Source: Polyangium fumosum (GTDB lineage Bacteria; Myxococcota_A; Polyangia; Polyangiales; Polyangiaceae). From it: DNA of 64,000 nt. Under the pieces are notes generated by a model. It had not been told where the DNA came from. It searched no databases and saw nothing but the letters and a program-made list of their open reading frames with translations. Of this stretch, positions 8,543-31,821 are shown in pieces. The position numbers and the translations under genes are program-made. Each line of letters starts with the position of its first letter. Positions within the stretch are counted from its first letter, which is position 1. Location of the stretch: the NCBI RefSeq assembly GCF_005144585.1, contig NZ_SSMQ01000031.1, forward strand, positions 62,001 to 126,000, written 5' to 3'.

Positions 8543-8558
8543 CGAAGCGAAGAAAAGC

Positions 8559-8602: not shown

Positions 8603-8611
8603 CGTTGGTCC

Positions 8612-12884: not shown

Positions 12885-12894
12885 GGCGCGCCTC

Positions 12895-13671: not shown

Positions 13672-14837
13672 CACGCCTCCTCGAGCCGCCCGAGCACGCG
13701 GCGCACGACGACCTCGATTCGCTCCCGGAGCTCCCGCCCGTCCGGGTGATCCAGAATCACCTCGCGTCGCAGGCGATTGAGCGCCATCAAATGCGCAGAA
13801 ATCGCCGTCTCCCCGCGCAGGCTCCCCTCGCGCTCCTCCAGCGTCTCCAGATCCGCGAGGATATGCCTTTGCCCTCGCGCCCGCGGCGCCTTCGCGCCCC
13901 CGGCCTCGGTGATCCGCGCCTCCACCACGCGCCGCAGGATCGGCGCGTCCGAAGGCCGCGACCACACGTGCTTGATGGGCCACAGATCCTCGACCGCCGC
14001 CTGCTCCCGCCCCGCGACGAGCGCCGCGCCCGCGACGAGCCGCAGCCCCTTCACGATCCGCCGATCCGAAAGCTCCAGCCCCTCGGCCCGTGTATCCCGC
14101 AAAATCTGCTCGTACAGCGGCCGCACCTCCGAGAGCTTCACCTCGGCGAGATGATATTGCAGCGCCCGCACCGCCGATTCCTTCAACATCGGCACCACGG
14201 CCGTCCCCTCCCCGCGCTCGCTCCTCTTCGCCGCGTCGAGCCGCTCCACTTCCAGGTCCCAGCCTCGATTGAGCAATTCGCCGAGCCCCTCGTCCGGCGC
14301 CGGTGGGGCCAGCACCCGCAGCGCGAATCGATCGGCGAACGCCTTCAGCGTCGGATCGTCCGGCAGCTCGTTCGAGGCCCCGACGAGCGACATCAGCGGC
14401 ACCCGCTGCCGGACCGGGCCATTGTGGAACACCCGCTCGTTTACCAGCGTGAGCAGCGTATTCAAGATCGCGCTCCCGCCCTGGAACACCTCGTCGAGGA
14501 ACGCGATCGTCGCCGAAGGCAACATCCCCTCCGTGCGCACGTGGTACCGCCCCTCTTGGAATGCAGGCAGATCCAGCGGCCCGAAGATCTCGGCCGGCTC
14601 CGTGAACCGCGTGAGCAGGTAATGGAACCGCGGCGCGTCGATCTGCTCGGCGAATCGCGTCAAGAGATCACTCTTCGCCGTGCCCGGCGGCCCGAGCAAG
14701 AGCACGTGCTCCTGACAAACCGCGCCGAGCACGAGGATATCCACCGCCTCGTCCCGCAGGAAAAACTGCCGCTTCAGCTCCTTCGCGAGCCGCGACAGCC
14801 GGTCCACCGTCCGAAGGGTCGCCTCCGGATAACTCAC
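13671..14837 (-). CDS. MoxR/RavA-type AAA+ ATPase of the ternary system
   Basis: 388 residues, GTG start overlapping the previous stop (GTGA). Walker A GPPGTAKS at about residues 49-56, Walker B IAFLDEVF (about 112-118), sensor SNELPDDPTLKAFADRFALR, then a helical C-terminal domain. The LDEVFQGG and NELPDD motifs are those of the RavA/MoxR group. These ATPases act with vWA partners; the WD40-vWA gene across the divergent promoter is the obvious candidate. It is encoded directly after the CDC48/FtsH-like ATPase. Confidence 0.93.
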   Translation of the reverse strand: MSYPEATLRTVDRLSRLAKELKRQFFLRDEAVDILVLGAVCQEHVLLLGPPGTAKSDLLTRFAEQIDAPRFHYLLTRFTEPAEIFGPLDLPAFQEGRYHVRTEGMLPSATIAFLDEVFQGGSAILNTLLTLVNERVFHNGPVRQRVPLMSLVGASNELPDDPTLKAFADRFALRVLAPPAPDEGLGELLNRGWDLEVERLDAAKRSERGEGTAVVPMLKESAVRALQYHLAEVKLSEVRPLYEQILRDTRAEGLELSDRRIVKGLRLVAGAALVAGREQAAVEDLWPIKHVWSRPSDAPILRRVVEARITEAGGAKAPRARGQRHILADLETLEEREGSLRGETAISAHLMALNRLRREVILDHPDGRELRERIEVVVRRVLGRLEEA

Positions 14838-16822
14838 GGCGATCCTCCTCCGGACGTCCCATGCCCGCCGGGGCCATTCCCCGACGCAAGCGTGAACAAG
14901 GCCCCCGACGGCCGCCGCGGCCCGGGCCCCGACGGCGCCCGCGCGGCGACCGCCACGATCGGCGCGGCCCCTTCGAGCCTTTGCTCGTCGGCCGCCGCGC
15001 GAATCCTCCCGACCAGAAATCCGAGCCGCTCCGCTGTCGGCTCGATCGGTGGTGTCTCGCAAAACAGCCCCACGCACGCGTCGCGGAAGATCGACCGGAT
15101 CTGATCCCCGTTCATCCCGTGCGTCGCCTCCGCGATCACGTCGAGCAGCGCGGGGCTCGCCTCAATCTGAAAATGCTTCGCGTGCACCTCGGCGATACGC
15201 CGCCGCGCCGCCTCGTCGGGCAAACCAATGGCGATCGGCTGAAACCGGCTCGGCCGGAGCAACGCCTCGTCGATGAGGTTCAGCCGGTTCGTCGTGCCAA
15301 TCACCAGCATCGGCACGTCGGGCCGAAACCCATCCATCTCCGTCAAGATCTGCGCGACGAGCGCATTTCCCGCGCGGCTCCCGCCGTCGTCGCGCCCGCT
15401 GCGCTTGGCCGCGATCGAATCGAACTCATCGAATACCACCACGCTCGGCGCGTTCCGGCGCGCCTCGGCGAAAATCGCGCGGAGCTTCCGCTCGCTCTCG
15501 CCCACGTACATGTCCGTGACCTCCGGCCCGGACACGACGCGGATCGTCGCGTTCATCTGGTTCGCGATCGCCTTCGCGAACAGCGTCTTGCCTGTCCCCG
15601 GCGGCCCGTGGAACAAGAATCCCCGCGGGATGAGTTCGCGCCGGAGCTTGTCGTCCGGGAGCTGGAACACCCCGGCGAGCAGCTTGATCGCCCGCGCGAG
15701 CAGCGCCTTTTCGTCTTCATACCCCCCGATGTCGGCCATCGAGACGTCTGGAATGACGAAATCCTCGGACGTCTGCGCCTTGAACATCCGGATCGACTCG
15801 TAGAGCCGGGCGACCCGCGAGGGGTTGTCCGGGCCATGCCCGCGCCGCGCCTCGATCTGGACAGCGTAGGCCATCGCGTCGCGCAGCCGGATCGGATTGA
15901 GCCCCGCGACCTGCTTGAAGAACTCCGCCGGCTTGTAATCGGCGAACATCGCCCTTTCTTTTTGGGTCACGAGCGCCACCCCCACCGGGGCTCGCTGCCC
16001 CTCCAGAGGCACCTCCCGCGGCAGCCCCGAGAGCGAAATACGCACGGAAAAACGCGCCGCCACCACCTCTGGCACCACGAGCGACCGATCCACGAACGCG
16101 AGCAACGGCCTATCCGGCGCCTCGTACAGAAGCTCCGTGATCTCCCGCGCTTCGCTCGACATCCCGCGCTCGGTCGCCGCCACGAGCAGATCGAGGTGCG
16201 GCAGCACGAGCACCTGCCCCTCCTTCAGCCCGAAGATCAGCTCCCGCAGCCGCGCAATCTGCATCTGCCGCAGGCCCCGCGGCACGATCCCCGCCTCCGC
16301 GTCCTCGGGCGGCAGCTCCAGCACCACCCGATCGAGCCGCGCCGCCGCCACGATCCGCGGCCAGAGGTGCCGCACGACGAGTTTGTCACAAATGACCATG
16401 GCCGACAAACCGGCCCGCAGGAACGACGCGACCTGCTCGATCTCGTCGCCATACGCGATCTCCACGGCTTGCGCCTCCGAGATCGCCTGCGGATGTCCCT
16501 CCAGCGCGGGCGGCGGTTTTGCCGCGGCTGCAGGCGCCTTCGGCGCGACGACCGGCACCGGCGCCTGCGGCGCGGGGTGCGCCGTCGCCGTTGGCAGCCG
16601 AAGCCCCGGCGGCCAGAACACCGGCGTCCGCTCGGAGATCGTCACCACCTTGATCCGCAGATCCGATACGCGCCGATCGAGCACCTCGGCGAGCGGCTCC
16701 AGCGACACCGCCGGGCACATTTCGAGCAATCCGCGCAGCGTTTGTTCCTGCGCATTGAACAGCGCATCCTGAAACGCCTCGGCATCCCCGAGCGGCGCGA
16801 GCGAGACGAGCGGCCGGCTCAT
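14834..16822 (-). CDS. CDC48/FtsH-like classical AAA ATPase
   Basis: 662 residues; ATG overlaps the previous stop. The active AAA module has Walker A GPPGTGKT (about 406-413), Walker B VVVFDEFDS (about 461-469) and a second region of homology GTTNRLNLIDEALLRPSRF with the arginine-finger position. Residues about 190-300 look like a degenerate first AAA module: they keep the Walker-B/sensor-like segments (VLVLPHLDLLVAAT, PLLAFVDRSLVVPEVVAARF) but no Walker A. This architecture, dead D1 and live D2, resembles CDC48-type unfoldases. No HExxH protease motif is present, so it is not a true FtsH protease. Expected to unfold or extract tagged targets. Confidence 0.93.
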   Translation of the reverse strand: MSRPLVSLAPLGDAEAFQDALFNAQEQTLRGLLEMCPAVSLEPLAEVLDRRVSDLRIKVVTISERTPVFWPPGLRLPTATAHPAPQAPVPVVAPKAPAAAAKPPPALEGHPQAISEAQAVEIAYGDEIEQVASFLRAGLSAMVICDKLVVRHLWPRIVAAARLDRVVLELPPEDAEAGIVPRGLRQMQIARLRELIFGLKEGQVLVLPHLDLLVAATERGMSSEAREITELLYEAPDRPLLAFVDRSLVVPEVVAARFSVRISLSGLPREVPLEGQRAPVGVALVTQKERAMFADYKPAEFFKQVAGLNPIRLRDAMAYAVQIEARRGHGPDNPSRVARLYESIRMFKAQTSEDFVIPDVSMADIGGYEDEKALLARAIKLLAGVFQLPDDKLRRELIPRGFLFHGPPGTGKTLFAKAIANQMNATIRVVSGPEVTDMYVGESERKLRAIFAEARRNAPSVVVFDEFDSIAAKRSGRDDGGSRAGNALVAQILTEMDGFRPDVPMLVIGTTNRLNLIDEALLRPSRFQPIAIGLPDEAARRRIAEVHAKHFQIEASPALLDVIAEATHGMNGDQIRSIFRDACVGLFCETPPIEPTAERLGFLVGRIRAAADEQRLEGAAPIVAVAARAPSGPGPRRPSGALFTLASGNGPGGHGTSGGGSP

Positions 16823-17742
16823 GCATCTTCTCCGGCGAGGCGCGCGCCGAGCTGGAACAGCCGCGTCCCCTCGAGCATCCCTTCGAGATCGAGCCCGTGC
16901 CGCGTTCGCAAGAGCTCCGCGTGCGCCCGACGGATCCGCCAGAGCGGCCCATAAAACGCAGCCACTGCGAGCGCGTCCTCGATCTTCGCCTCCGGGTCCC
17001 CCCGCCCGAGGATCACCGCCCGCGCCGCCGTGATCTCCTCGATCACGCGCTCGCGATGAAACACGAGCGCCGCCTCGTACACCTCGATCACCAGATCGAG
17101 CAAGCTCGTTTCCCCCGTGCGCAGCCGCTCCATCGCCGCCGCGCGGAACCGCCGCACCTCGCGCGGAGCGCCCGGCCGCGCGAACGTTTGGACCACCAAC
17201 CTTCTTCCGTCCGCATGCCGGGCGATCGCGGCGATCGTCGCGATCGTCTCGTCCTCCCCGCCGGGCGCGGGCCTGCCGAGCGCGGCCGTGAGCGGCGACC
17301 GTGCGCGCAGCATGTCCGCGAAATCCGCGTCGATCGACGTCGCGAGCGCGCGCGAGCATATCGCATCCCGCAGCACGAGATCCCACGCCCCCGAGAGCTC
17401 CGGACAGGCCTCCGCGAGCGCCTCCGCCACGCCCTTCGTCTCCACAACCCCCACGGCCGCGGCGAGCACCACACCTCCGGGCCCGAGCGGCCTTCCATCG
17501 CCGAGCGGCGGCGCGCGCAGGCCGAGCTTCGCCGCGTGGATCGCGGCGAGCGCCGCCGCCGCATCTCGCAAGCGCTGCGGCGGCGCGAGCAGCGAGGGAT
17601 ACCCCATCTCTCCTTGAGGCGTTTTCCGCGGCCGCGCCCCGCCGGGCGCGCTCGCCCACGCGATCACCTCCGCCGCGATCGCCGTGGCTGCCGAGGTCCG
17701 GCCCGCGGGTTGTCTCGACGCACCCCGTTCGAGCTCCGTCAC
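16819..17742 (-). CDS. Helical protein of unknown function in the conjugation operon
   Basis: 307 residues with GTG start overlapping the JAB stop (GTGA) and its own stop overlapped by the AAA start. It is nearly all alpha-helical, Ala/Leu/Arg-rich, with no membrane segment and no catalytic motif. The region around MGYPSLLAPPQRLRDAAAALAAIHA is the most distinctive. Its placement between the deubiquitinase-like and the AAA genes suggests an adaptor that hands substrates to the ATPase; this is inference from context only. Confidence 0.82.
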   Translation of the reverse strand: MTELERGASRQPAGRTSAATAIAAEVIAWASAPGGARPRKTPQGEMGYPSLLAPPQRLRDAAAALAAIHAAKLGLRAPPLGDGRPLGPGGVVLAAAVGVVETKGVAEALAEACPELSGAWDLVLRDAICSRALATSIDADFADMLRARSPLTAALGRPAPGGEDETIATIAAIARHADGRRLVVQTFARPGAPREVRRFRAAAMERLRTGETSLLDLVIEVYEAALVFHRERVIEEITAARAVILGRGDPEAKIEDALAVAAFYGPLWRIRRAHAELLRTRHGLDLEGMLEGTRLFQLGARLAGEDA

Positions 17743-18338
17743 GCGAGCACCTCCACGGCACACGGCACCAAGAAGTCGCCCTGCCGCGCGAAAAACGAGA
17801 CCTCGCGCCCCTCGGGATCCCGCGCCGGATCCACGCAGACGAGCGCCGCGACCTGCCAGGGCCGCCGGAACGTGGAGAAGTGCAGATCCCGATCGACCAC
17901 GGAGAGCCCCCGATCCTCCGGCCCTGCGACGAGGTGCGTGTGAAACCAGCCGAGGATCGAGGCCCCATCGCGCTTCGCCTCGGCATGCCGCCGCATCGAG
18001 GCGAACGACTCCGGCGAAAACACGAGCGCGTCCGGCGCCTCCTCCGTGTGCTCGGCCCGGATCACCTCCGTCACCACGACGAGCCACCGCGAAGGCGCAT
18101 CCGCGTCCCGGTGCACCTCACCGAACAGAAACCCGCCTTCCTCCACCTCGCGCGAAAATCCCCACGAGACGCCGAGCGAATCGCGCACGTGGTCCCGGAC
18201 GAACACGTCGACGGGCCCGCCTTCGCGCGCCGCCCCGGGCCACGCGCGGGCGCGCGGACCGAGCGCGCTCTTCGTTCGGAGGGGCGGCGGCGGCGCCTTG
18301 ATCGGGGACACGCCGAACGCCTTTTTCGCCCGGATCAT
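17739..18338 (-). CDS. JAB/JAMM metallopeptidase (deubiquitinase-like)
   Basis: 199 residues; ATG overlaps the E2 stop by four bases. The zinc-binding JAMM motif is intact: Glu74 in GGFLFGEVH, then His133-x-His135 (GWFHTH) and Ser146-x-x-Asp149 (LSVVDRD). The His-to-Ser spacing is ten residues instead of the usual seven. JAB proteins in bacterial ubiquitin-like operons cleave isopeptide bonds or trim the modifier's C-terminus. The N-terminal 45 residues are Pro/Arg-rich and probably disordered. The E1-E2-JAB order matches known bacterial ubiquitin-like cassettes. Confidence 0.94.
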   Translation of the reverse strand: MIRAKKAFGVSPIKAPPPPLRTKSALGPRARAWPGAAREGGPVDVFVRDHVRDSLGVSWGFSREVEEGGFLFGEVHRDADAPSRWLVVVTEVIRAEHTEEAPDALVFSPESFASMRRHAEAKRDGASILGWFHTHLVAGPEDRGLSVVDRDLHFSTFRRPWQVAALVCVDPARDPEGREVSFFARQGDFLVPCAVEVLA

Positions 18339-19732
18339 GCCGAGAGCCGCTCGATCCTCACGCTGCGCGCGCGCCGCGCCGCCCCGCCTTCGAGCTCGCT
18401 CCACGAGCGCCCGCCGCTCGCCGTGATCGCGGCTTGCCCCTCGGGCGAGGCGGCCCAGGCGTGGGCCTCGGGGTTGTAGACCTCGCGCAGCTCGTAGTTC
18501 CGGTACGACGCCATGTCGACGAGCATCTGACAAACCGTACCGAAATGCAGCCCCGGCCGGTAGCTCTCCGCGAGCACGCCCAGACAAACGAGCCCCGTCT
18601 TCGCGTCCACGTTCGGGTGAAATACCTCGCGCTGGAAATACGCCTCCGGCGCCTTCACCGGGAAATCGGGCGGCATCACCAGGAGCACCTCGTGCGCCTC
18701 GACCCGCCGCGGCGGTGATCCCGGGGCAAACCCCGGCGCGCGAAAGCGCACGAGGTACTCCGTCGGCACGTCGAGTGCGTTCGCCTGCACCTCGAAGCCC
18801 TGGTGCGTCCCGGCAAACTCGAGGATCTGGTTCTTCACCATCGCCAGGCTCTCGGTCAGCAGAAACGGATTCACGCTGCCCGCGCGGCGCTCCGGATGGA
18901 TTTCCAGGAGATCGAAGGGCTGCACGCCCGCGTCGTGCAGCGTCTGCTGCGAGAAGAGCCGCCGCGCCCCGCGCTCCCCGGGCCGCCGCAGATCCACGAC
19001 GGGCAGCGCCTTTTCGCCTTTGCCCATGGGCCAGAACGCCTCCTCGTAGGCCCCGAGGATCGCCTGCGCCACGTCCACGAGCCGCGTCGAGGCCCGCACG
19101 TGATCGAGCACGAACCGCTGCCCGTCCGGCCCCTCGGCTTGCAGCGGATCGAGGAAATAATCGCGGAACGCGTGGCTCTCGCGCGCGACCTCCACGCGCA
19201 TCGAGGGCTCGATCGACGCGCGGAGCGACCGCACGATCGTCTCCGCCTCTTCCTCGCTCGCGCCTTCGAACGACACGCAGAGACCTCCTTCCTCGCGGCT
19301 CACGAGATCGAGCGCCGCCCTTCGCCCGAGCGAGGCCGCGACGCCGCGCGACGCCTTCACGATCGCCAGGATCTGCTCGTCGCCGAGATCCTCCTGCAGC
19401 ACGATCGAAATGGGCAGCGCCTGCGCGCCCGATTCGCGCGCAAAGCCCGCCTCACGCCCCTTGCCACGCTTGCCGGGAAAGAGCCGCGACGCTTCGGCGA
19501 GCAGCGCCGAGACCCCCGCGCGCCCGCCGCCTTGCTCCACGATCTCGGCGACCTTCTGGAAATAGTCGTGCGCCGGCCCCTCGAACCGCGGCAGGCGCGC
19601 GCCTTCGAGGCCCGGCACGCCTGCGAGGATCGCGCCGCCGAGCAGCGTGAGCGCGTCCTCGCGTGTTTCTGCCACGCGCCCGAGCTCGCCCACCGCCTCC
19701 GCCGTGTCCAGAAGAAGTCCCGCGTTCGACAT
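18335..19732 (-). CDS. E2 ubiquitin-conjugating-like enzyme with fused Ubl domain
   Basis: 465 residues; ATG shares one base with the E1 stop. The last 130 residues are a UBC fold: HPN motif (FHPNVD, about 371-376) with the catalytic Cys383 in GLVCLGVL, then the typical helical end. Before it, residues about 235-290 (ending TLHDAGVQPFDLLEIHPE) read like a YukD-type ubiquitin-like domain, without a terminal GG, so probably a docking domain rather than the free modifier. The first 100 residues contain a helical segment (GGGRAGVSALLAEASRLFPG) resembling an effector-associated (EAD1-like) adaptor. E2 enzymes carry the activated modifier from E1 to targets. Confidence 0.93.
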   Translation of the reverse strand: MSNAGLLLDTAEAVGELGRVAETREDALTLLGGAILAGVPGLEGARLPRFEGPAHDYFQKVAEIVEQGGGRAGVSALLAEASRLFPGKRGKGREAGFARESGAQALPISIVLQEDLGDEQILAIVKASRGVAASLGRRAALDLVSREEGGLCVSFEGASEEEAETIVRSLRASIEPSMRVEVARESHAFRDYFLDPLQAEGPDGQRFVLDHVRASTRLVDVAQAILGAYEEAFWPMGKGEKALPVVDLRRPGERGARRLFSQQTLHDAGVQPFDLLEIHPERRAGSVNPFLLTESLAMVKNQILEFAGTHQGFEVQANALDVPTEYLVRFRAPGFAPGSPPRRVEAHEVLLVMPPDFPVKAPEAYFQREVFHPNVDAKTGLVCLGVLAESYRPGLHFGTVCQMLVDMASYRNYELREVYNPEAHAWAASPEGQAAITASGGRSWSELEGGAARRARSVRIERLSA

Positions 19733-20802
19733 CAGGAAAGCTCCACGTACGTGATTCCGACTCGACCGAGCACCGCGAGGATCTCGCGCGGCGCCACCCC
19801 CAGATCCGACAACACCGCCCCCTCGGGCGCGCTCTCGAAGAGGAGCGTCGTCCGCGCTCGCATCAACGTACCACAACGCGGACAGCCTCGGGTGGACGGC
19901 ATGCCCCACGCCTCCTCGGCGTGATCCCCGCGCGGACATTCGAGCCTCTGCAAGAGCGGGCTCCACGCGAGCGGCCGCGCCCCCGGCCCGAGCGCCGCGC
20001 GAAGCGCCCCCACGGTCGCATCACTCCCGAGCGGAATTCGCGTCGCTTCCCCGATCGGCGCATGCAGCGGGCAATCCGGCGCGCGCTGCATCCGGAGCGG
20101 CTCGGCCGCGCCGCGCAGCACGTCGATCACGACCGCGTCGGTCGCCGCCGCCTCGCCCATGATCACCCGCGCCGCGAGCGCGCTCGCCCACGCGCCCACG
20201 AGGCCCGCGACAGGCGCGCTCGACCCGAGCTCCGCAGGCCTGCGCGGATCCATGCAGCTCCACGGCACGTCGCTCTTCGCGCGCTCCTCGGGCGAGAGCG
20301 CACACGCGTAACACGGCCCGTCCGGATCCAGAAACGGCCGCACCTCCCCGCCCCACGCCGACGTCGCCGCGTCGATCCACCGCGCGCGCACGAGCCCCGC
20401 GCGCCCCGCGAGCGACATCCGCGCCGCGCGGCTGTCGAGACACCCCACGACGAGCGACGCATCCCGCAGCTCCGCGAGCCCCACGCCCGAGACGAGCGCT
20501 GCAGGCCGCGCCTCCACGACCGTCTCCGGCGCGAGCGCGGCGAGCGTATCCTTCGCCGCCAGCGCCTTCGGCCGCCCCACGTCCGCGGGCCGAAACAACG
20601 GCGCGCGGCTCAGGTTCGAGGCTGCGACAACATCAGGATCACAAAGCACGAGCTTTCCCACGCCCGCGAGCGCGAGCGCCTGCGCGACCACGTTCCCGAG
20701 CGCGCCCACGCCCGCGATCACCACCGTCGCCGCGGCGAGCCGATCCTGCCGAAACCCCGGCACGAGCGCGTGCCGCGCGAACCGCTCGGACAAACCGCTC
20801 AC
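19732..20802 (-). CDS. E1-like ubiquitin-activating enzyme (ThiF family)
   Basis: 356 residues from a GTG overlapping the RING-like stop (GTGA). The Rossmann motif GVGALG (31-36) and the conserved Asp57, Asn63, Arg66 and Lys79 of ThiF/MoeB adenylation domains are all present. CYAC (164-167) and a C-terminal CPRCG provide probable zinc ligands; Cys183 in PWSCMDPR is the best candidate for the thioester cysteine. About 100 C-terminal residues after the adenylation domain may be an E2-binding part. It would adenylate the modifier and pass it to the E2 encoded immediately downstream. Confidence 0.94.
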   Translation of the reverse strand: MSGLSERFARHALVPGFRQDRLAAATVVIAGVGALGNVVAQALALAGVGKLVLCDPDVVAASNLSRAPLFRPADVGRPKALAAKDTLAALAPETVVEARPAALVSGVGLAELRDASLVVGCLDSRAARMSLAGRAGLVRARWIDAATSAWGGEVRPFLDPDGPCYACALSPEERAKSDVPWSCMDPRRPAELGSSAPVAGLVGAWASALAARVIMGEAAATDAVVIDVLRGAAEPLRMQRAPDCPLHAPIGEATRIPLGSDATVGALRAALGPGARPLAWSPLLQRLECPRGDHAEEAWGMPSTRGCPRCGTLMRARTTLLFESAPEGAVLSDLGVAPREILAVLGRVGITYVELS

Positions 20803-21383
20803 GTGAGCTTCCGCGAGGTCACGGGGCAATGCTGCCCGATCTTGCTCTTCTGCCACTCATCGAAGCAATACATCGTCCGGATCGCGTCGCGGTGCACGGC
20901 CCCGCGGCAGAGCGGCGCCTCGGGGCTGCACGGACAAACCACGACCTCATCGAACGGCCGGAGCGTGTGCCCGCAGATCACGCACGAAGGCCGCCGCCCC
21001 GCGCCCCCCGGCGCCGCGAGCCGCGGATCCCCCGGCAAGAGCCGCACGAGCGGGAGCCCCTCGGGCGGCGGATGCGCGGACGCGACCCCCGCGTAAAACG
21101 CCTCGCGCTCCCGCGACGACGCCGACGCCGAGATCGTCTCCTCGTCCGGACAAACCTCCCCGTGACGCACCTCGTCCCTCGCCGCCCCCGCGGGATCCAC
21201 GGCATCGCCGCGCCGGAACGTGTGCCCGCAGTGCGTGCAGGTTTTTCCCAGCCACGGCGAGCGGATCGTGGTCCGCGTCCCCCCACCTGCCGCGGGCTCT
21301 TTGCGCGTCGGATCCCGCCCCTTCCCGAGGCCTCGGTCGAACGCCTCGCGGAGGGCCGCTTCCACGGTGTCCCGCTTCGCCAT
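20799..21383 (-). CDS. RING-like zinc-finger protein, candidate E3 component
   Basis: 194 residues, first gene of the operon. ATG 21383 is preferred over an in-frame TTG six bases upstream. The C-terminal 70 residues place eight zinc ligands in RING-like order: CVIC, then CPC, C, H (AVHRDA), C (MYCFDEW) and C (HCPVTSR), consistent with a prokaryotic RING/treble-clef finger. A related half motif, CTHCGHTFRRGD, occurs near residue 50, as if the finger were duplicated (compare CVICGHTLRPFD). With E1 and E2 downstream, a ligase or target-selecting role is likely. The family assignment is from ligand pattern only. Confidence 0.87.
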   Translation of the reverse strand: MAKRDTVEAALREAFDRGLGKGRDPTRKEPAAGGGTRTTIRSPWLGKTCTHCGHTFRRGDAVDPAGAARDEVRHGEVCPDEETISASASSREREAFYAGVASAHPPPEGLPLVRLLPGDPRLAAPGGAGRRPSCVICGHTLRPFDEVVVCPCSPEAPLCRGAVHRDAIRTMYCFDEWQKSKIGQHCPVTSRKLT

Positions 21384-21415
21384 CTGCAAAGAACCTTAGC
21401 AAATCCCCTCGGATT

Positions 21416-21427
21416 CGGATACATCCG
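21416..21427. promoter_or_regulatory. Palindrome in the divergent promoter region of the ternary system
   Basis: The only gap between the two divergent operons is 64 bases (21384-21447). It holds the palindrome CGGAT-AC-ATCCG, itself nested in a wider imperfect repeat (CCCCTCGGAT at 21405-21414 against ATCCGGGG at 21423-21430). Its central position makes it a candidate operator co-regulating both operons. No regulator gene is adjacent. Confidence 0.45.
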
Positions 21428-21447
21428 GGGGTCGGGAGCGCCGGGGC

Positions 21448-23715
21448 ATGAGCGAGCCGCAACACGCACGCAAGGCCACGCTCGACGCGTACGTGACGCG
21501 CCAGGCCGCCACGGTGGGCCGCGCCCCCGTGGCCGAGGACGTCGCGACGATCGGCCCCGTCGGCCCCTTCAAAGGCGCCACCGGCGCAGCCTCGCTCGGC
21601 ATCATCGACGATTTCTCCGAGAGTTACCTCGGCAAGGGCCCGGGCTCCGTCACCTTCGCCCGCGACGGCCGCTCGCTCTACTTCGGCCGCGACGACGGCA
21701 AGCTCCGGCGCCTCGCCCTGCCCGCGGGCACGCTCCTATGGGAGCAAAGCGAATCCGAATACGGACGCGGCATTCTATGCGTCGCGGTGTCGCCCGACGG
21801 AAAACGGATCGCCTATGCCCGCAAGAGCGGCGACGTGCGCATCGCCGACGCCGAGACCGGCAAGACCCTCCGCGAAATCAAGGGCGGCAATGCCTTCTTC
21901 GAGCTTTCTTTCTCGAAGGACGGCCAGCTCCTCGCCATGGGCGGCCAGGGCGGCACGCGCCTCCTCCACCTCGCCACGATGGCCGAGACCGCGCTCGCCG
22001 CGAGCCATTGGACGATGTCCTATTCCGTCGCGTTCGCCCCCGAGGCGCCGATCCTCGCCGAGGGCGCGACGGGCGGAAAGCTCCGCCTCTGGAACATGCC
22101 GAGCGGGCTCCGCGCCGAGCATCAGCATCATCGGGGCGACATTCACGGCGTCGCCTGGTCGCCCGACGGCAACCGTCTCGCCACCGCGTCCGAGGACAAA
22201 GACGTCATCCTCTGCGGCCTCGACCCGAAAGATCCGATCCTCCGCCTCACAGGCCACACGGGCCTCGTCTTTTGCGTCGCCTGGTCCCCCGAGGGCCGCC
22301 GCATCGCCTCCGGCTCGGCCGATCGCACCATTCGAATCTGGGACGCGCACACCGGCCTCCCGCTCGCCCGGTACGAATTCCCCGAAGACTTCGCCTATCG
22401 CCTCGCCTTTTCGCCCGACGGCGTCCTGCTCGCGTCGACGCACCCTTGCACGGCGCGCGTCTGGAATACGCAGGCCACCCTCAAAGCCGTGGCGCCTGCG
22501 CCGCGCCTCCTCAGCGCAGGCCCGCTCGCCGCCGATCTCGACCCGCTACCCGGCGCGCTCGTCGCCCTGCTCCGCGTGAATCGCTCAGCGCCGCTCTCGC
22601 TCCTCCGCGAATTGCTCGCCCTCACCGCCGGACAAACCTCGTCCCCCGCAGCCCAGCGCCTCGCGCGCCACCCCGGGACGAGCGCCCTCGCCGCGCTCCG
22701 CTGGCCACCGCAAGCCCGTATCGCGCTCGTCTTGCTCCTGCTCCGCGACTCCGAGGACACCTCGTTTGCCCCGCCAACCGACACCTCCGCCGCCGAGATT
22801 CGTTTCGCCCTGATCGACGCCCTCGCCGGCGGCGCCTCCGAGCCCGACGCGCCGCCCTTGCCCCTCGCGTACCTCGAACACGCCCTCGACGCCGTCGACG
22901 ATCGCCTGCTCGCCTTGCTCGGCTCCCTCGGCCCCGAGGCGTGCGCCGACGATCCCACCCTGCCGCTCGTGATGCTCGGGCGCCTCGCTGAGCTCGCGCC
23001 GCGGATCGCCCTCGATCGCCGGCTCCTCGCCTTGCGTATCCCCGCGCAGAGCCTCGGCGCCGCGGAGGCGCGGGGCCCCTGGCTCGAACCCTCGGGGTTT
23101 TCTTCGTCGGGCCACCTCCTCCAGCTCGTCCCCTCACAATGGGCCTTGCCCGACGATCTCCGGCAGTATCGCGCCCTCGCCGGCGGCCTGCTCTATCGCG
23201 CCCGCTTCGGCCGCGAGCCGCCGCGCCTGCGCCCGCTCGTGCTCGTCCTCGACGTCTCGCCCACCGCCTTCGGCCCGGTCGAGGCCCTGCTCCGGCAAGC
23301 CGCGCACGCCCTCGCCGCGTCCCTGCTCGACGTCGGCCTGCCCGCCTATTTCATTGCAGCCGGCGGCAACAACGAAGCGCGGGCGATCGCCCACCGCGCA
23401 GACCTCTTCGAAGTGCTCACGGCCCGCGCGCGCGAGCCCGTGCATACCGGACAAACCATGGCCCTCGCCGCCGAACTCTGCACGTCCTTGCCCATGCACG
23501 GTCCGCTCGAACCCACGATCGTGCTCCTCTCGCATCCGTCGTTCGGCGAGGAGGACCTCGACGTCCCCGCGCCCAAGGACCTCGCCGGCTTTTTCGTGCA
23601 TTACCCGGGCCACCCCCGGGAGCCCGCGTGGCAAAGGCGATGCAAGCGCGCCGTCTGCCTCGGCCCCGACGACGAAGGCCTGCTCGCGGCGGCCCTCGGG
23701 CAGGTGCTCGCATGA
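21448..23715 (+). CDS. WD40 beta-propeller-vWA fusion, ternary-system sensor/partner
   Basis: 755 residues. Residues about 60-350 contain WD40/propeller repeats (VAWSPEGRRIASGSADRTIRIWDAH is the clearest). A helical middle follows. From about residue 595 there is a vWA-like domain: strand RPLVLVLDVSPT, with the MIDAS motif altered to Asp602-x-Ser604-x-Thr606, and later GQTMALA and SHPSFGEED, where a canonical domain has T and D ligands. Metal binding may therefore be weak. In described systems this propeller-vWA partner works with MoxR and the FtsH/CDC48-like AAA, both encoded across the short divergent promoter. It overlaps the next gene by four bases. Confidence 0.92.
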   Translation: MSEPQHARKATLDAYVTRQAATVGRAPVAEDVATIGPVGPFKGATGAASLGIIDDFSESYLGKGPGSVTFARDGRSLYFGRDDGKLRRLALPAGTLLWEQSESEYGRGILCVAVSPDGKRIAYARKSGDVRIADAETGKTLREIKGGNAFFELSFSKDGQLLAMGGQGGTRLLHLATMAETALAASHWTMSYSVAFAPEAPILAEGATGGKLRLWNMPSGLRAEHQHHRGDIHGVAWSPDGNRLATASEDKDVILCGLDPKDPILRLTGHTGLVFCVAWSPEGRRIASGSADRTIRIWDAHTGLPLARYEFPEDFAYRLAFSPDGVLLASTHPCTARVWNTQATLKAVAPAPRLLSAGPLAADLDPLPGALVALLRVNRSAPLSLLRELLALTAGQTSSPAAQRLARHPGTSALAALRWPPQARIALVLLLLRDSEDTSFAPPTDTSAAEIRFALIDALAGGASEPDAPPLPLAYLEHALDAVDDRLLALLGSLGPEACADDPTLPLVMLGRLAELAPRIALDRRLLALRIPAQSLGAAEARGPWLEPSGFSSSGHLLQLVPSQWALPDDLRQYRALAGGLLYRARFGREPPRLRPLVLVLDVSPTAFGPVEALLRQAAHALAASLLDVGLPAYFIAAGGNNEARAIAHRADLFEVLTARAREPVHTGQTMALAAELCTSLPMHGPLEPTIVLLSHPSFGEEDLDVPAPKDLAGFFVHYPGHPREPAWQRRCKRAVCLGPDDEGLLAAALGQVLA

Positions 23716-24743
23716 CCTCGTCTCCGGAATGGCGCCCCGCGCGGTTTTACCGGACCGACGGCGCGCGCCTCACCTGCACCCTCTGCCCCTTCGCGTGCGC
23801 GCTCGCGGACGGCGATCGGGGCCGCTGCCACGTCCGGCAGAGGCGCGGCGACACGATGGAAACGGCGACCTACGCGACGTCCGTCCTCCACGCCCAGCCC
23901 ATCGAGCGCAAGCCGCTGTATCACGTTCATCCCGGAAAAACCGTCCTCACCGTGGCCGCGCCGGGCTGCACGTTCGCCTGCACGTATTGCCAGAACTTCC
24001 CCCTCTCGCAGCACGGCCGCATCGAGGCGCCGTGGACCGCGCGTCCCATCACGGCGCGAGAGCTCGTCCGCGCGTGCGCGGAGAAAAACGCGCTCCTCGC
24101 CTTCTCGTACACCGAGCCCCTCCTCGCCGCCGAGCTCGCGCTCGACGTCGCCGAGCTCCAGGGCGACCCCGGCCCCGCCATCGTTTGGAAGACCAATGGG
24201 TTCGTCACGAAACACGCCGCCCGGCTCGTCGCCCCGGCCCTGCTCGCCGCCAACGTCGATCTGAAGACGCCGGCCGACCTTTCGCACCGCAAGCTCACGG
24301 CCGCGCCGCTCGCGCCCGTCCTGGAAGCGCTTTCCATCTGGAAAGAATGCGGCGTCTGGCTCGAAATCTCGACCCCGCTCATCCCGGGCCTCAACACGGA
24401 CGACGCCTCGCTCCGCGCCCTCGCCGCGCTCGTCGTTTCGTTCGGCGCCGAGACCCCGTGGCACCTCGTCCGTTTCCACCCCGATTATCGCCTCCAGGAA
24501 GCCCCCCCGACACACCCCGACCTCCTCCGCCGCGCCGTCGCCCTCGCGAAGGACGCCGGGCTCGTGCACGTGTACGTCGAGCGCGCGCTCGGCGAGGACG
24601 GGCGCAATACATCTTGCGCGGGCTGTGGCCAGGCCGTGATTCGAAGAGACGTGTGGGCGCTCGCGGAGAACAACCTCCTTCACGGAACATGCCCTCATTG
24701 CTCACGGAAGGTCCCCGGGCGATGGGACGAGGTGCCGACATGA
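23712..24743 (+). CDS. amrS: AmmeMemoRadiSam-type radical SAM enzyme
   Basis: 343 residues, ATG overlapping the vWA stop (ATGA). The radical SAM cluster motif C-x3-C-x2-C is GCTFACTYCQN (Cys86, 90, 93). N-terminal CTLCPFAC...GRCHVR and a C-terminal CAGCG...CPHC add further Cys, as in the AmmeMemoRadiSam/PflA-like family. Family members accompany AMMECR1 and MEMO proteins, which are absent here; instead it is locked into the vWA operon. Its reaction is unknown; a modification of the system's own protein or of a target is possible. Confidence 0.9.
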   Translation: MTSSPEWRPARFYRTDGARLTCTLCPFACALADGDRGRCHVRQRRGDTMETATYATSVLHAQPIERKPLYHVHPGKTVLTVAAPGCTFACTYCQNFPLSQHGRIEAPWTARPITARELVRACAEKNALLAFSYTEPLLAAELALDVAELQGDPGPAIVWKTNGFVTKHAARLVAPALLAANVDLKTPADLSHRKLTAAPLAPVLEALSIWKECGVWLEISTPLIPGLNTDDASLRALAALVVSFGAETPWHLVRFHPDYRLQEAPPTHPDLLRRAVALAKDAGLVHVYVERALGEDGRNTSCAGCGQAVIRRDVWALAENNLLHGTCPHCSRKVPGRWDEVPT

Positions 24744-24949
24744 CGAAACGCGAATTCGTCGAATCCCTGCCCGACCTCATCACGCCCGAGGAGTATGCGG
24801 CCGATCCCGAGGGCCGGAAGGTCAAGCTGCGCATCCGGCCGACGGCGGACGGCGTGGAGGTGATCGGCGACGCCGTCCGGCCCAAGGAGCTCGAAGAGAT
24901 CCTCCTCGCCCTCGACCCGGCCGTCCTCGAGCAAATGCTCTGCGGCTAG
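24740..24949 (+). CDS. Small acidic protein linked to the radical SAM gene
   Basis: 69 residues, start overlapping the radical SAM stop by four bases (ATGA). It has a mixed alpha/beta sequence (MTKREFVESLPDLITPEEYA, then KVKLRIRPTADGVEVIGD, then a Leu/Glu-rich helix ending EQMLCG). The single Cys two residues before a terminal Gly is notable. It could be a substrate or partner of the radical SAM enzyme; I recognise no family. Confidence 0.8.
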   Translation: MTKREFVESLPDLITPEEYAADPEGRKVKLRIRPTADGVEVIGDAVRPKELEEILLALDPAVLEQMLCG

Positions 24950-24974
24950 CCTGCAAGTCCGGGCGTTCGTGGTA

Positions 24975-24990
24975 GGTTTGTACTCAAACC
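24975..24990 (+). promoter_or_regulatory. Hairpin abutting the TonB-receptor start codon
   Basis: Perfect inverted repeat GGTTTG-TACT-CAAACC ends on the base before the ATG at 24991. The purine-rich GGTAGG that might serve as ribosome site (24971-24976) overlaps the left arm, so the hairpin could limit translation, or it may be a protein-binding operator. Confidence 0.45.
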
Positions 24991-27441
24991 ATGCCGTACC
25001 CGGGATCGCGTCCCCTCCGCGCGCACGAAACGATCCTCTCCCGCGCCCTGATCGCCGGCGCAGCGGCCCTCGCCCTCGGCCTCGTCACAGCCCCGTCCCA
25101 CGCCGAGCCCGCGAGCGAGCCCCCCGAGGCGACCATGCCCTCGCCGCGCGGGCCGACGATCCCGCCCTATCCCGAGGGCGCGACGGGCGACGCCGATGTC
25201 ATGCTCGCCATTCTGGTGCGCTCCGACGGCAAGGTCACCGAGGCCCGCGTGATCGAAGGGCCCGAGCCGTTCGCCAGCGCCGCGGCCGCCGCCGCCTCGT
25301 CGTGGGAGTTCGAGCCCGCGCGCCGCAATGGAAAACCCATCAGCGCCCGCATCCGCTTCCTCGTCTCGTTCCGCGCGCCCGCCCCCGTCCCCGAGACCCC
25401 CGCGCCGCCCGCGGAGACCTCCCCCGCGCCCGCGACAACCCCGGCCGCGCCTGCCCCGACCGCGCCGCCTGCCAAACCCCCGGCGCCCAAGGCCATCGAG
25501 GTCCGCGTCCAAGGTGAACACCAGGCGCCGACGACGCGCACGATGTCGCGCGTCGAGGTCCGCCAGCTCCCCGGCGCATTCGGTGATCCTTTCCGCGCCA
25601 TCGAGGCCATGCCCGGCGTCACGCCCATCGCCTCGGGCGTCCCCTATTTCTTCGTGCGCGGCGCGCCGCCCGGCAACGTGGGGTATTTCCTCGACGGCAT
25701 CCGCGTCCCGCTCCTCTTCCACGTGGCCGCGGGGCCAAGCGTCATTCACCCCGGCCTCGTCGATCGCGTGGACCTGTATCCCGGCGGCTTCCCTTCGCGG
25801 TATGGCCGGTTCACGGGCGGCATCGTCGCGGGCACCGTCCGCGAGCCCGAAAACCGCCTGCACGGCGAGGGCAACATCCGCTTGTTCGACGCCGGCGCGA
25901 TGGTCGAGGCCCCGTTCGCGAACGGCCGCGGCGCCGCGCTCGTCGCTGGCCGATATGCATATCCCGAGCTGGTCCTGAAGCTCGCTTCCCCGGGCGTCGA
26001 GCTCGGCTATTGGGACTATCAGGCGCGGATCCATTACGACCTCACGCCCTCGGACCGCATCAGCGTGTTCGCCTTCGGCTCGCACGATTACCTCGCGCAG
26101 ATCGATGAGGACGACGGCGAAAAGGAGGTCGTCGTCGCCGGCCAGTTCCACCGCATTGATTTTCGTTACGATCGGAAGCTCGGCAACCGCGGGAAATTGC
26201 GCCACGCGATCACGCTCGGCTACGACGAGAGCGAGGCCCGCGGCGGCGAAAACGCGGGCAAAACGTGGCTGCTCGGCTCGCGCACCGAGCTCACCTTGCG
26301 CCCCTCGGACCTCGTGACCGTGCGCGCGGGCGCCGACGCGTACGTCGAGCGCTTCAAGATCGACATCGAGGAGGACGACGACGACGCGCCGAGCCCGAAC
26401 GACCTCGCGCTCCTGCGGCAGCTCACGAGCCGCGACGATTTCACCGCCGCCGTCTGGGCCGACGCCGTGATCCGCCCCCTGCCCGCGCTCGAGCTCGTCC
26501 CCGGCGTGCGCTCCGACATCTTCACGTCCGACGGCGTCGCCAAGGCGACCTTCGATCCGCGGCTCGCGAGCCGCCTCGAGGTCGGAAAACGCTTCACGAT
26601 CGTCGGCGCGTTTGGCGTGTCGCACCAGCCCCCGAGCTTCCTCGGCGCGGCCCCAGGCCTTCAGATCGGGGGATTGCAGGGCGGCGTGCAAACGGGGCTC
26701 TTATCGAGCGCGGGCGTCGAGATGACCCTGCCCCTCGACATCACTGCGACCGTGACGGGCTTTCGTGGCGCGTTCTTCAACCTGAGTGATCCGATCGGCA
26801 ATCGCCCCCCCGCGACGGAGCTCGGGTATGCCCGCCAGGCGGAGCTCCGCGGAACCGGCAGCACGTACGGCATGGAGCTTTATCTCCGACGCAGCCTCTC
26901 GAAGCGCCTCGGGGGGTTCCTCTCGTATACGCTCTCGCGTTCGCTCCGCCATATCGGAAACCAAACGTTCGAGTCGGCCTACGACCGGCGGCACGTCATG
27001 AACCTCGCGGCCTCCTACGACCTCGGCAGGAACTGGAAGATCGGCGGCCGCATCGTCTTTTACACGGGCTCCCCGATGATCCTCGATTACCGGGTCCGCC
27101 GCCGTGACCTCGGCCTGCCGGACGAACCCGACGAGGGACCGGATCTCCCGGACACCCCCGAGGACCACGCGCAACGCGAGGAGCTCCGGAAGCTGCTCGC
27201 GAACTACGTGCAGAGCCTCAACTTGCCCGACCGCCTGCCCGCGTTTTTCCGCCTCGACGTGCGTCTGGAAAAACGATGGACGTTCCCGAACGGTCGCTGG
27301 CTCTCGTTCACCGTGGAGGTCCTGAACGCGACCGCCGGCAAGGAGGTGACGCAATATGAATGCTCGTTCCAGGACGGATGCGCGCCCGAGGAGATCGGGC
27401 CGCTCGTGATCCCGAGCATCGGCGTCGAGGGCGGTTTTTAG
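24991..27441 (+). CDS. TonB-dependent outer-membrane receptor with N-terminal TonB-like domain
   Basis: 816 residues. The signal peptide ends SHA; residues about 50-128 (YPEGATGDADVMLAILVRSDGKV...SSWEFEPARRNGKP) look like a TonB C-terminal domain, followed by a Pro/Ala linker (about 129-168). Then come the plug (FFVRGAPPGNVGYFLDGIRVP, GGFPSRYGRFTGGIV) and a beta-barrel. The TonB-like module ahead of the plug is common in myxobacterial receptors and may sense or aid energisation. The last residues (GVEGGF) fit a barrel end. The ligand is unknown. Confidence 0.92.
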   Translation: MPYPGSRPLRAHETILSRALIAGAAALALGLVTAPSHAEPASEPPEATMPSPRGPTIPPYPEGATGDADVMLAILVRSDGKVTEARVIEGPEPFASAAAAAASSWEFEPARRNGKPISARIRFLVSFRAPAPVPETPAPPAETSPAPATTPAAPAPTAPPAKPPAPKAIEVRVQGEHQAPTTRTMSRVEVRQLPGAFGDPFRAIEAMPGVTPIASGVPYFFVRGAPPGNVGYFLDGIRVPLLFHVAAGPSVIHPGLVDRVDLYPGGFPSRYGRFTGGIVAGTVREPENRLHGEGNIRLFDAGAMVEAPFANGRGAALVAGRYAYPELVLKLASPGVELGYWDYQARIHYDLTPSDRISVFAFGSHDYLAQIDEDDGEKEVVVAGQFHRIDFRYDRKLGNRGKLRHAITLGYDESEARGGENAGKTWLLGSRTELTLRPSDLVTVRAGADAYVERFKIDIEEDDDDAPSPNDLALLRQLTSRDDFTAAVWADAVIRPLPALELVPGVRSDIFTSDGVAKATFDPRLASRLEVGKRFTIVGAFGVSHQPPSFLGAAPGLQIGGLQGGVQTGLLSSAGVEMTLPLDITATVTGFRGAFFNLSDPIGNRPPATELGYARQAELRGTGSTYGMELYLRRSLSKRLGGFLSYTLSRSLRHIGNQTFESAYDRRHVMNLAASYDLGRNWKIGGRIVFYTGSPMILDYRVRRRDLGLPDEPDEGPDLPDTPEDHAQREELRKLLANYVQSLNLPDRLPAFFRLDVRLEKRWTFPNGRWLSFTVEVLNATAGKEVTQYECSFQDGCAPEEIGPLVIPSIGVEGGF

Positions 27442-27445
27442 CGGT

Positions 27446-28735
27446 TCAAGGTCCCAGGACGAGATATCGGATGCCGATGTCGCTCGTCGTGTTGAACTCG
27501 TAAAGCGCGACGTGGATCCGGCCGACCCCGTCACGGTCGAACGTGGCGCCGAACGGAGAAAACCCCTCCGTCACGACGGCCAGCTTGGGCCCGCTGGGAA
27601 CAGGCGCGGCGACGACGAGTTGTCCCGCGGTCGGCGAGGCGAACTTGACCCTCGAATAAAAGAGACGCACGGCGCCCGCCTCGTTGGTCACGATTCCCAG
27701 CGGATATACCGTGGTGTCCTGTGGCACCTGTTCGAGGGGCATGACGGTCCACGTGTCCTTCCCTTCGCGCGTCGCGTACACGAGCTCGAACGTGAAATCC
27801 GAGAGCTGGCGTAATGCGAGGACGTGGGGTTTGCCCTGGGGGTTCACGACGTCCGCCGCGGTGGTGCCCAGCACGAGGCGATACGCGTCCGCTTGCAGGG
27901 TCCCCGCGCCGAGCGGCATGACGACCTCGTGCGCGTGCGGCGGCGTTTGCCAGTGAAGCTTCCACGCGCCATTCACGGCCTCCCACGCGATGAGGTGCGG
28001 CGCGCCCTCGGGCGAGACCACGACCGGGAACGGAAAGGGGGTCCCGCCCAGCGTTTCGATGGACCAGGACGAACTACCATATCGCCCCAAGAGGAGCTCG
28101 TCGCCGGGACCACGGAACCCAGCGAAGAACTCACCGGTTTTTCCGAGCGCGAATCCCCGGGCCAGGTGCGTTCCCTCCTCGGGGACGTCTCCGACGAGGC
28201 TCCACCCCTCCGTCGTGAACGACCACAACGAAGCCCCGAACGCTCCGTCGTTCACGAGCGCGACCGGAACATCCGGCGCAATCGAAACGAGCCCGGCCGT
28301 GGCCGAATCAAACGGCGTCGGGATCACCTGCCAGTCGCCCACGGCCTTGCGTACAGCGTAAAACCCTTTGTATTCGCCCGTGGCCGACGAAAAGAGGACC
28401 CGGGGGTGGCAGGACGCATCGAGCGAGAGCGCGGGGGCGTCGTTCCGATATGCGGGCGGAACGGCAAGCAGCTCCTCTTCGAGGACCTGGCAAGGCGCTT
28501 CCAGGCCGCAAAGCGGCTGCGCGGGGCCCGAAGGATTCGTGAGCGGCTTGCACAGCGCAGACGGACCCGCGCCCCAACCGCCCACGCCGGACGAGCCGCC
28601 GACGCCCCCGGAGCCGCCGGCGCCCGAGGCCCCGGCGCCGCCGCTCCCGGCCGTGGAGGTGTCGATCGTATCCACCACGGGCCCGCAGCCCGTGAGCCCA
28701 GCCGAGAAACCAAGAAAGGCAAGAAGGTACTTCAT
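27446..28735 (-). CDS. Hypothetical lipoprotein, beta-propeller-like
   Basis: 429 residues, lipobox GLTGC, then a Gly/Ser tether (GGAGASGAGGSGG). The mature part repeats beta-rich stretches such as VVSPEGAPHLIAWEAVNGAWKL and GKPHVLALRQLSDFTFELVYATREGKDTW, which resemble blades of a propeller reading 'data' repeats. Six cysteines sit near the N-terminus. It ends 4 bases from the convergent TonB receptor stop. The function is unknown. Confidence 0.85.
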   Translation of the reverse strand: MKYLLAFLGFSAGLTGCGPVVDTIDTSTAGSGGAGASGAGGSGGVGGSSGVGGWGAGPSALCKPLTNPSGPAQPLCGLEAPCQVLEEELLAVPPAYRNDAPALSLDASCHPRVLFSSATGEYKGFYAVRKAVGDWQVIPTPFDSATAGLVSIAPDVPVALVNDGAFGASLWSFTTEGWSLVGDVPEEGTHLARGFALGKTGEFFAGFRGPGDELLLGRYGSSSWSIETLGGTPFPFPVVVSPEGAPHLIAWEAVNGAWKLHWQTPPHAHEVVMPLGAGTLQADAYRLVLGTTAADVVNPQGKPHVLALRQLSDFTFELVYATREGKDTWTVMPLEQVPQDTTVYPLGIVTNEAGAVRLFYSRVKFASPTAGQLVVAAPVPSGPKLAVVTEGFSPFGATFDRDGVGRIHVALYEFNTTSDIGIRYLVLGP

Positions 28736-29684
28736 GGGCGCATGGTACCAGGAGCCCGGTCGGTCCGCGAGGCGCCAAAAAGCCTGTCAGGGGCTCGACA
28801 GGAGGGCGCTGATGAACCTGGACGCGTAACTCGACACGAGGAGATCCGGCAACGTGTCGCCATTCAGCCGCCCGACGGCGAGTGAATACCCGGACCACAC
28901 GTACGGGAACGTCACCTCGGCGTTGAAGTGCCCCGCCGCATCCTGGAAGTGCAGCGGGATCTTTTGATCAAACGAGGCGACGCTCGCGATGTCGAGCCTG
29001 CCGTCGAGGTTCAAATCGACCAGGAAGACCTTCCGGAGCTGCTTGCCTGCGGGCACGAGCGTCGGCTCCGCGAGCTCGCCGGCCGGCATTCCCTTGAAGA
29101 GGCGCAGATCCGCGAGGTCCGTGAAGATGCTCGGCGCGACCACGAGATCGGTTTGTCCGTCCTCGTCGACGTCGCCGGCCGCGAGCGCGCCCACCTCGAA
29201 ATCGCATGGCTTCGTGGCGAGCTTCGTGAAGGCCCCGTTGCCCGCGTTCTCGAACGTATCGATCCGTGTGCTGATCCCGAGGACGAGCTCGGGCAAACCA
29301 TCCCCCGTACGATCCACGAGCGTCGCGGAATCGACGTCGAACCCGACGGCGATCGTGAACTTGGTCTTCGGCGAGAGTCCTCCCACGCCGTCATTGAGGA
29401 GGGCTTGCGCGTCGTAGGAGCCGACGAGGAGGACGTCGTTGTCGCCGTCGGCGTCGAGATCCTCGACGAAAAGCTCATGCGTCGCGTCAAGGACGCCCGG
29501 CACCGGCACGGGCGCGCCAAAATGGCCGACGCCGTCATTGTGGAGAACGTGCACCACCTGCGCGCCGAGCGAAAAGGCGAGGACGAGGTCGAGCGAGCCG
29601 TCGCCGTTCATGTCCCCGAGCGCGACCCGCGACGTCGACTGCGTATTCGGCACCTGCACCGGCGGGAGGAGGCGCCCCGTTCCA

Positions 29685-31730
<2,046 letters not shown>

Positions 31731-31821
31731 GAGGCCTCCCGGAAGTGGGGAAAGGAAGTCCGCGCGAACGACGATTCCACAAGCCCCACGCACCGTCACG
31801 CGAATCCCGCGTCGAGCACGA

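What the first reader, a model, noticed from the sequence alone, without database searches (positions are those of the whole stretch)
23712..24949. AmmeMemoRadiSam radical SAM enzyme and a 69-residue partner locked to the vWA gene
Stops and starts overlap by four bases at both junctions. The usual MEMO and AMMECR1 partners are absent. The 69-residue protein ends in CG, so it may be substrate or carrier. A radical modification step added to a tagging system would be unusual.
Basis: partly seen in the sequence, partly recalled or inferred. Interest (0 to 1): 0.62.

Follow-up and report, generated by a model that had tools for sequence, protein, structure and literature searches.

The report
Radical SAM–small-protein pair in FtsH system
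A radical enzyme and a 69-residue partner protein, already described in print as an add-on of the bacterial FtsH-vWA-MoxR conflict system, sit here inside that system in the soil bacterium Polyangium; the partner is unusually well conserved up to an end in cysteine-glycine, which makes it the likely target of the enzyme.

Summary
In detail: a 343-residue AmmeMemoRadiSam-family radical SAM gene (23712-24743) and a 69-residue gene (24740-24949) follow the beta-propeller/"vWA" gene, with 4-base overlaps at both junctions. The pair is not new. The small protein is Pfam PF20007, "FtsH ternary system-associated peptide", and Kaur et al. 2020 (PMC7159879) already proposed that the enzyme modifies it.

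What I add: (1) in a sister Polyangium (G292) both flanks are present but the whole ternary cassette is missing, the break lying about 20 bases after the small gene, so the pair belongs to the cassette. (2) PF20007 and fvmX2 exceed their cut-offs in the same 4 of 377 Myxococcota genomes, all one genus. (3) This is the only family radical SAM found in the genome; AMMECR1 was not found, and a MEMO lies on another contig and occurs in G292 too. (4) The small protein is the most constrained of the three (dN/dS 0.00-0.10), and its next-to-last Cys is the strongest of four positions of PF20007 masked singly. That fits a folded substrate better than a fast-diverging precursor; no HExxH was found in the cassette's genes.

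Most likely the enzyme modifies the small protein, perhaps at Cys-Gly. Chemistry and function are untested.

The parts
23712..24743 (+). radical SAM enzyme, 343 aa, AmmeMemoRadiSam family, FVM-associated clade
   Evidence: TIGR04337 258.5 bits, cut-off 220; CxxxCxxC at C86/C90/C93 plus the family's N-terminal and C-terminal Cys kept when compared with 31 canonical Myxococcota members
24740..24949 (+). 69-residue partner protein ending in Cys-Gly
   Evidence: PF20007 fvmRadSAM-pep 88.5 bits, cut-off 27; dN/dS 0.00-0.10
21448..23715 (+). beta-propeller protein with divergent C-terminal 'vWA' half, 755 aa
   Evidence: WD40 matches; no vWA match by Pfam
20799..21389 (-). RING-like zinc protein (E3 candidate; start approximate)
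   Evidence: Prok-RING_1 17.7 bits, below the cut-off 29.1
19732..20856 (-). E1-like ThiF protein
   Evidence: PF00899 144.9 bits
18335..19732 (-). E2-like protein with HPN and VCLG motifs (read in the sequence); the Ubl part is not confirmed
   Evidence: UQ_con 47.3 bits; fvmYukDl_N only E 0.11, below cut-off
17739..18340 (-). JAB/JAMM-like peptidase (start approximate)
   Evidence: JAB 17.2 bits, below the cut-off 22.5; HTH...S..D motif read in the sequence
16819..17742 (-). fvmX1 protein (start approximate)
   Evidence: PF19998 201 bits
14834..16822 (-). FtsH-type AAA+ protein
   Evidence: PF00004 136.2 bits
13671..14876 (-). MoxR AAA+ protein (start approximate)
   Evidence: PF20030 bpMoxR 240.9 bits
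12895..13690 (-). fvmX2 protein (start approximate)
   Evidence: PF20000 229.8 bits
11962..12633 (-). TPR protein
   Evidence: TPR_2 38 bits
10184..11965 (-). fvmX7 protein
   Evidence: PF20005 89.4 bits
10116..24969 (.). whole FVM cassette as bounded by loss of synteny in sister genome G292
   Evidence: blastn of the window against L094: flanks 5926-10115 and 24970-28739 align at 85% and 84%, nothing aligns between them

Best explanation
The two genes are the peptide-modification arm of a complex-type FtsH-vWA-MoxR ternary system (E1, E2, RING-like, JAB-like, X1, X2, X7, FtsH-type AAA+, MoxR, beta-propeller/'vWA'). Shown: the pair lies inside the cassette, the enzyme keeps its cluster cysteines, and the small protein is under strong purifying selection, with a strongly preferred C-terminal Cys-Gly in its Pfam model. 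Inferred: the enzyme docks the folded small protein, makes a 5'-deoxyadenosyl radical, and oxidises or rearranges a residue at or near the conserved C-terminal EQMLCG stretch. The matured small protein then acts as an activated subunit or signal for the AAA+/vWA machine, its making being tied to the vWA protein by translational coupling.
For: Family matches. The cassette boundary runs just after the small gene. PF20007 and fvmX2 pass in the same 4 of 377 genomes; a search denser near the window gave PF20007 over cut-off in 5 of 385, all Polyangium, with the sixth genome of the genus in that search, G292, negative. Overlaps kept in 4 of 4 other loci examined. dN/dS of the small protein 0.00-0.10 against 0.19-0.29 (enzyme) and 0.15-0.27 (propeller/vWA), five sequences, 10 pairs each. 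Masking the 69-mer against PF20007 costs 6.3 bits at Cys68, the largest of the four single-residue masks (Met66 4.2, Leu67 3.5, Gly69 2.9); Cys to Ser costs 5.8, Cys to Ala 5.7. The enzyme's nearest other families are glycyl-radical-enzyme activases, whose substrates are proteins (established knowledge): TIGR02494 41.7 bits, far below its cut-off, and PDB PFL-activating enzyme at E 0.018 (weak). Kaur et al. made the same substrate proposal.
Against: No chemistry is shown. Only residues 66-69 were masked singly, so Cys68 is not proven to be the top position of the protein; and conserved Cys-Gly could serve docking or metal binding instead of being modified. AlphaFold2 gave no usable model of the small protein (mean pLDDT 55.1) and no PDB relative was found, so no binding site can be argued. 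Positives are one genus, so co-occurrence is a single event plus one joint absence. RING and JAB models match below cut-off, and vWA and Ubl parts were not detected.
Confidence: 0.6

Rival explanations
1. [quoted passage not shown]
For: Kaur et al. 2020 propose this with a zincin metallopeptidase and a C-terminal peptide more conserved than the rest (section 24). Here the C-terminus is conserved and residues 59-63 just before it are weakly conserved (3.1 bits for five residues), as a cleavable linker would be.
Against: No HExxH in the proteins of the cassette's genes: of four HExxH hits in stop-to-stop frames of 100 codons or more at 8000-28000, all on the plus strand and outside the three plus-strand genes, three are antisense to X7, MoxR and E1 and one (12870) lies between TPR and X2. 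Most of the protein, not only its end, is conserved. Shorter frames, other zincin motifs and distant peptidases were not tested; the JAB-like protein could cut.
Confidence: 0.18
2. The small protein is an accessory or carrier subunit: it binds the enzyme and presents another substrate, such as the vWA protein, or holds an intermediate on its Cys.
For: Tight operon order vWA, enzyme, small protein; strong constraint suits a folded partner.
Against: No match to a known carrier or recognition domain; only PF20007 matches above its cut-off in Pfam, nothing in NCBIfam.
Confidence: 0.14
3. The small protein is the free protein tag of the E1/E2 enzymes: its conserved C-terminal Gly is charged by E1 and moved by E2, with the radical enzyme setting or protecting that end.
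For: It ends in a conserved Gly (2.9 bits) in a cassette with E1, E2 (HPN and VCLG) and a JAB-like protein. A Ubl part of the E2 protein was not confirmed (fvmYukDl_N E 0.11).
Against: Kaur et al. name a radical SAM and a standalone peptide also in the simpler systems, described without the ligases (section 21), although section 24 ties peptide processing mainly to those with ligases. No ubiquitin-like fold could be shown.
Confidence: 0.06

Closest known systems
FtsH ternary system, complex type, with peptide-processing radical SAM (Kaur et al. 2020, PMC7159879; Pfam PF19998, PF20000, PF20005, PF20007)
   Same: MoxR, FtsH-type AAA+, beta-propeller on the 'vWA' protein, E1 and E2, RING-like and JAB-like proteins, X1/X2/X7, Memo-type radical SAM and peptide
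   Different: No HExxH found in the cassette's genes and no caspase match among the cassette genes scanned; small protein slowly evolving here; vWA and Ubl domains not detected by the searches used
AmmeMemoRadiSam trio (TIGR04337 with MEMO and AMMECR1)
   Same: Enzyme passes the family cut-off and keeps its Cys pattern; 34-40% identity to 31 canonical members
   Different: Separate clade; AMMECR1 not found in the genome; MEMO not beside the cassette and present in G292, which has no family enzyme over cut-off
FxSxx-COOH peptide with radical SAM-SPASM in VMAP ternary systems
   Same: Radical SAM plus small protein beside a MoxR-vWA system (as told by Kaur et al.)
   Different: Different radical SAM family; no SPASM match here
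Glycyl-radical-enzyme activases such as PFL-activating enzyme
   Same: Weak but best relatives outside the family; act on protein substrates (established knowledge)
   Different: Far below the family cut-offs; no glycyl radical motif noticed by eye in the partner

Membership tests
FtsH ternary system (complex type) | FtsH-type AAA+ plus MoxR plus vWA | tested here: inconclusive
   AAA 136.2 bits and bpMoxR 240.9 bits met; vWA domain not detected by Pfam. The inactive first AAA+ copy was not tested.
FtsH ternary system (complex type) | system-specific domains X1, X2, X7 | tested here: met
   PF19998 201, PF20000 229.8, PF20005 89.4 bits, all over cut-off
FtsH ternary system (complex type) | E1, E2-Ubl, RING, JAB | tested here: inconclusive
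   ThiF and UQ_con over cut-off; RING and JAB below cut-off; Ubl not detected
FtsH ternary system (complex type) | zincin peptidase in the peptide-processing part (claimed for most, not all) | tested here: not met
   no HExxH in the cassette's genes; other motifs untested
PF20007 fvmRadSAM-pep | sequence match over cut-off | tested here: met
   88.5 bits against 27
AmmeMemoRadiSam radical SAM (TIGR04337) | sequence match over cut-off, CxxxCxxC | tested here: met
   258.5 bits against 220; C86, C90, C93
AmmeMemoRadiSam system | MEMO and AMMECR1 partners | tested here: not met
   AMMECR1 in 0 of 5 Polyangium tested. MEMO in 5 of 5, but in the 4 with the cassette it lies on another contig (3) or 1.2 Mb away (G339)
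RiPP precursor | modification or cleavage of the peptide | not testable with these tools
   needs mass spectrometry

The most novel reading that the evidence does not exclude
The 69-residue protein is a radical-modified protein tag: the radical SAM enzyme alters its C-terminal Cys-Gly, and the E1/E2/RING/JAB enzymes of the same cassette attach and remove it, so that conjugation in this system is gated by a radical modification of the modifier itself.
Probability: 0.05. Interest if true: 0.85.

Novelty: new member of a known kind. Interest (0 to 1): 0.36.

Why it matters
The pair offers an AmmeMemoRadiSam-type enzyme with a small, dedicated candidate substrate. Among the papers listed by my searches (only the top of the long lists of 13 and 66 was shown) I saw none with biochemistry on this pair; the terms fvmRadSAM and PF20007 occur in no held paper and 'FtsH ternary' only in Kaur et al.. 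Two short genes from a genus with cultured members (recalled) make the reaction directly testable, and a result could hint at what the widespread AmmeMemo radical SAM enzymes (185 of 377 Myxococcota genomes have a match) do.

Tried and rejected
The idea that the pair is a stray insertion beside the system was rejected: the synteny break in G292 lies after the small gene. The idea that this is an ordinary AmmeMemo enzyme was rejected: it scores about 259 bits, where listed Myxococcota enzymes reach 655, and it forms its own clade (bootstrap not settled, midpoint root, FVM rows are 5 different sequences among 7). Two other low-scoring full-length enzymes, in G159 and G234 (207 and 202 bits), were checked for a hidden partner: tblastn found neither the small protein nor the propeller/vWA protein in about 19.5 kb around each; other ternary genes were not queried there. 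Weak fvmX2 matches in G121 and G159 (below cut-off): in the stretches around them tblastn found none of enzyme, small protein or vWA protein. Led nowhere: AlphaFold2 of the small protein (pLDDT 55.1); PDB search with it; viral contigs; plasmid records for the small protein and fvmX2 (no match), for the enzyme (6 records, all under 60% identity; the one opened showed no ternary gene among its listed features) and for the vWA protein (266 records, none covering 80%; the 20 listed cover only the propeller part); PADLOC, no match for the pair at E 0.001. I spent the single genome-contig scan on the 69-mer itself and got only 3 Polyangium loci, so the pair was not surveyed outside Myxococcota here; for that I rely on Kaur et al. 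The tree and residue comparison used 31 canonical enzymes (the 30 best-scoring loci plus G121), of 166 genomes over cut-off, four of which are these Polyangium. In one search matches up to E 1 were listed; 135 of 385 genomes rang but only 5 over cut-off, and 5 of 14 control genomes rang too, so those below cut-off were treated as noise.

Full report
Observation. The window (G000, 12.98 Mb in 201 contigs) carries a radical SAM gene at 23712-24743 and a 69-codon gene at 24740-24949, both plus strand, directly behind a 755-residue gene at 21448-23715, with ATGA overlaps at both junctions. The three named relatives of the locus are Polyangium species, and the whole-genome searches put all genomes over cut-off in the window's own genus.

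Identity of the parts. The enzyme matches TIGR04337 at 258.5 bits, over its cut-off of 220. The small protein matches PF20007, 'FtsH ternary system-associated peptide', at 88.5 bits (cut-off 27) up to the last profile position. The minus-strand genes match ThiF, UQ_con, bpMoxR, AAA, fvmX1, fvmX2 and fvmX7 over cut-off, and RING-like and JAB models below cut-off. So this is best read as a complex-type FtsH ternary system. The vWA half of the propeller protein and the Ubl part of the E2 protein were not detected.

What is already in print.

Belonging to the cassette. In G292, another genome of the genus, window 5926-10115 and 24970-28739 align at 85% and 84%, but nothing between aligns, and PF20007 and fvmX2 have no match anywhere in G292. 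The cassette thus runs from after 10115 to before 24970; the small gene ends at 24949. Alignment ends are approximate. In G292 about 8.8 kb of other sequence stands there (L094 7016-15771), with a symporter and a caspase-domain protein among its ORFs. PF20007 passes its cut-off in 4 of 377 Myxococcota genomes and fvmX2 in the same 4 of 377; two further fvmX2 matches lie below cut-off. With relatives drawn more densely PF20007 passes in 5 of 385, all in this genus, G292 being negative. This is one origin and one joint absence, not many independent events.

Relation to AmmeMemo. TIGR04337 matches in 185 of 377 Myxococcota genomes, over cut-off in 166. The window genome has one copy, this one. 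AMMECR1 was found in 0 of 5 Polyangium genomes tested but in 5 of the 7 other genomes of that call. One MEMO is present in 5 of 5 Polyangium tested, including G292, whose only TIGR04337 match is 24.3 bits; in the window genome it lies on another contig. So MEMO does not follow this enzyme. Compared with 31 canonical enzymes the radical SAM cysteines and the N- and C-terminal Cys groups are kept, and the FVM enzymes form one clade beside the canonical one (FVM 100/99, canonical 98/96).

The small protein. Over five Polyangium sequences (10 pairs) dN/dS is 0.00-0.10 for the small protein, 0.19-0.29 for the enzyme and 0.15-0.27 for the propeller protein; short length makes single values noisy, but the first range does not overlap the others. 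Masking residues against PF20007 in groups shows conservation over most of the protein from residue 6 to the end, with little at 2-5, 20-21, 33-36 and 49-50. Of the four residues masked singly (66-69), Cys68 costs most, 6.3 bits; Cys to Ser 5.8, Cys to Ala 5.7; Gly69 2.9, Gly to Ala 2.7. These are readings of the Pfam model, whose member list I could not see. The AlphaFold2 prediction of helices and a hairpin has pLDDT 55 and carries no weight.

Mechanism. Dedicated operon partner, slow evolution, a strongly preferred thiol at the end, and an enzyme whose weak outside relatives activate proteins make the small protein the likeliest substrate. The site (Cys-Gly), the chemistry and the role of the product are inference. 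A slow-evolving, largely conserved protein and the lack of HExxH in the cassette's genes sit badly with the peptidase-released peptide model for this genus, though the JAB-like or an unrecognised peptidase could serve. The same C-terminal Gly in a cassette with E1 and E2 leaves open a tag role, which Kaur et al.'s mention of the pair in simpler systems weakens.

Verdict. A sound observation of a published association, with new supporting evidence and a sharper testable target; a new member of a known kind.

Noticed in passing
L094 7016-15771 (G292), against window 10116-24969: The site of the ternary cassette is occupied in a sister species by other genes, including a caspase-domain protein (PF00656, 45 bits) and a dicarboxylate symporter; the site may be a hotspot for conflict genes.
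   Followed up: partly
L057 9226-10398 and L058 9294-10733 (G159, G234): Lone, low-scoring AmmeMemo-like radical SAM enzymes in genomes without MEMO or AMMECR1 matches, each beside a divergent ORF that by its GGDGTN motif (recalled) looks like a lipid kinase; a possible further branch of the family.
   Followed up: partly
G000:C124:33002-33880 and G292:C1:754239-755117: MEMO without AMMECR1 and, in G292, without a family radical SAM enzyme over cut-off: an orphan MEMO.
   Followed up: no
window 14834-16822: The FtsH-type AAA+ protein of the cassette matches PADLOC IetA models (94.3 bits), probably as a shared AAA+ domain.
   Followed up: no
window 23712, L005, L061-L063: The radical SAM start codon varies (ATG, GTG, TTG) while the 4-base overlap is kept.
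   Followed up: yes
window 29685-32237, minus strand: Long ORF with many CGDG...CDDGN repeats followed by FG-GAP-like repeats (by eye), perhaps a surface or secreted protein; most of it falls in a second stretch missing from G292 (window 28740-31830, where the two alignment blocks abut in L094).
   Followed up: no
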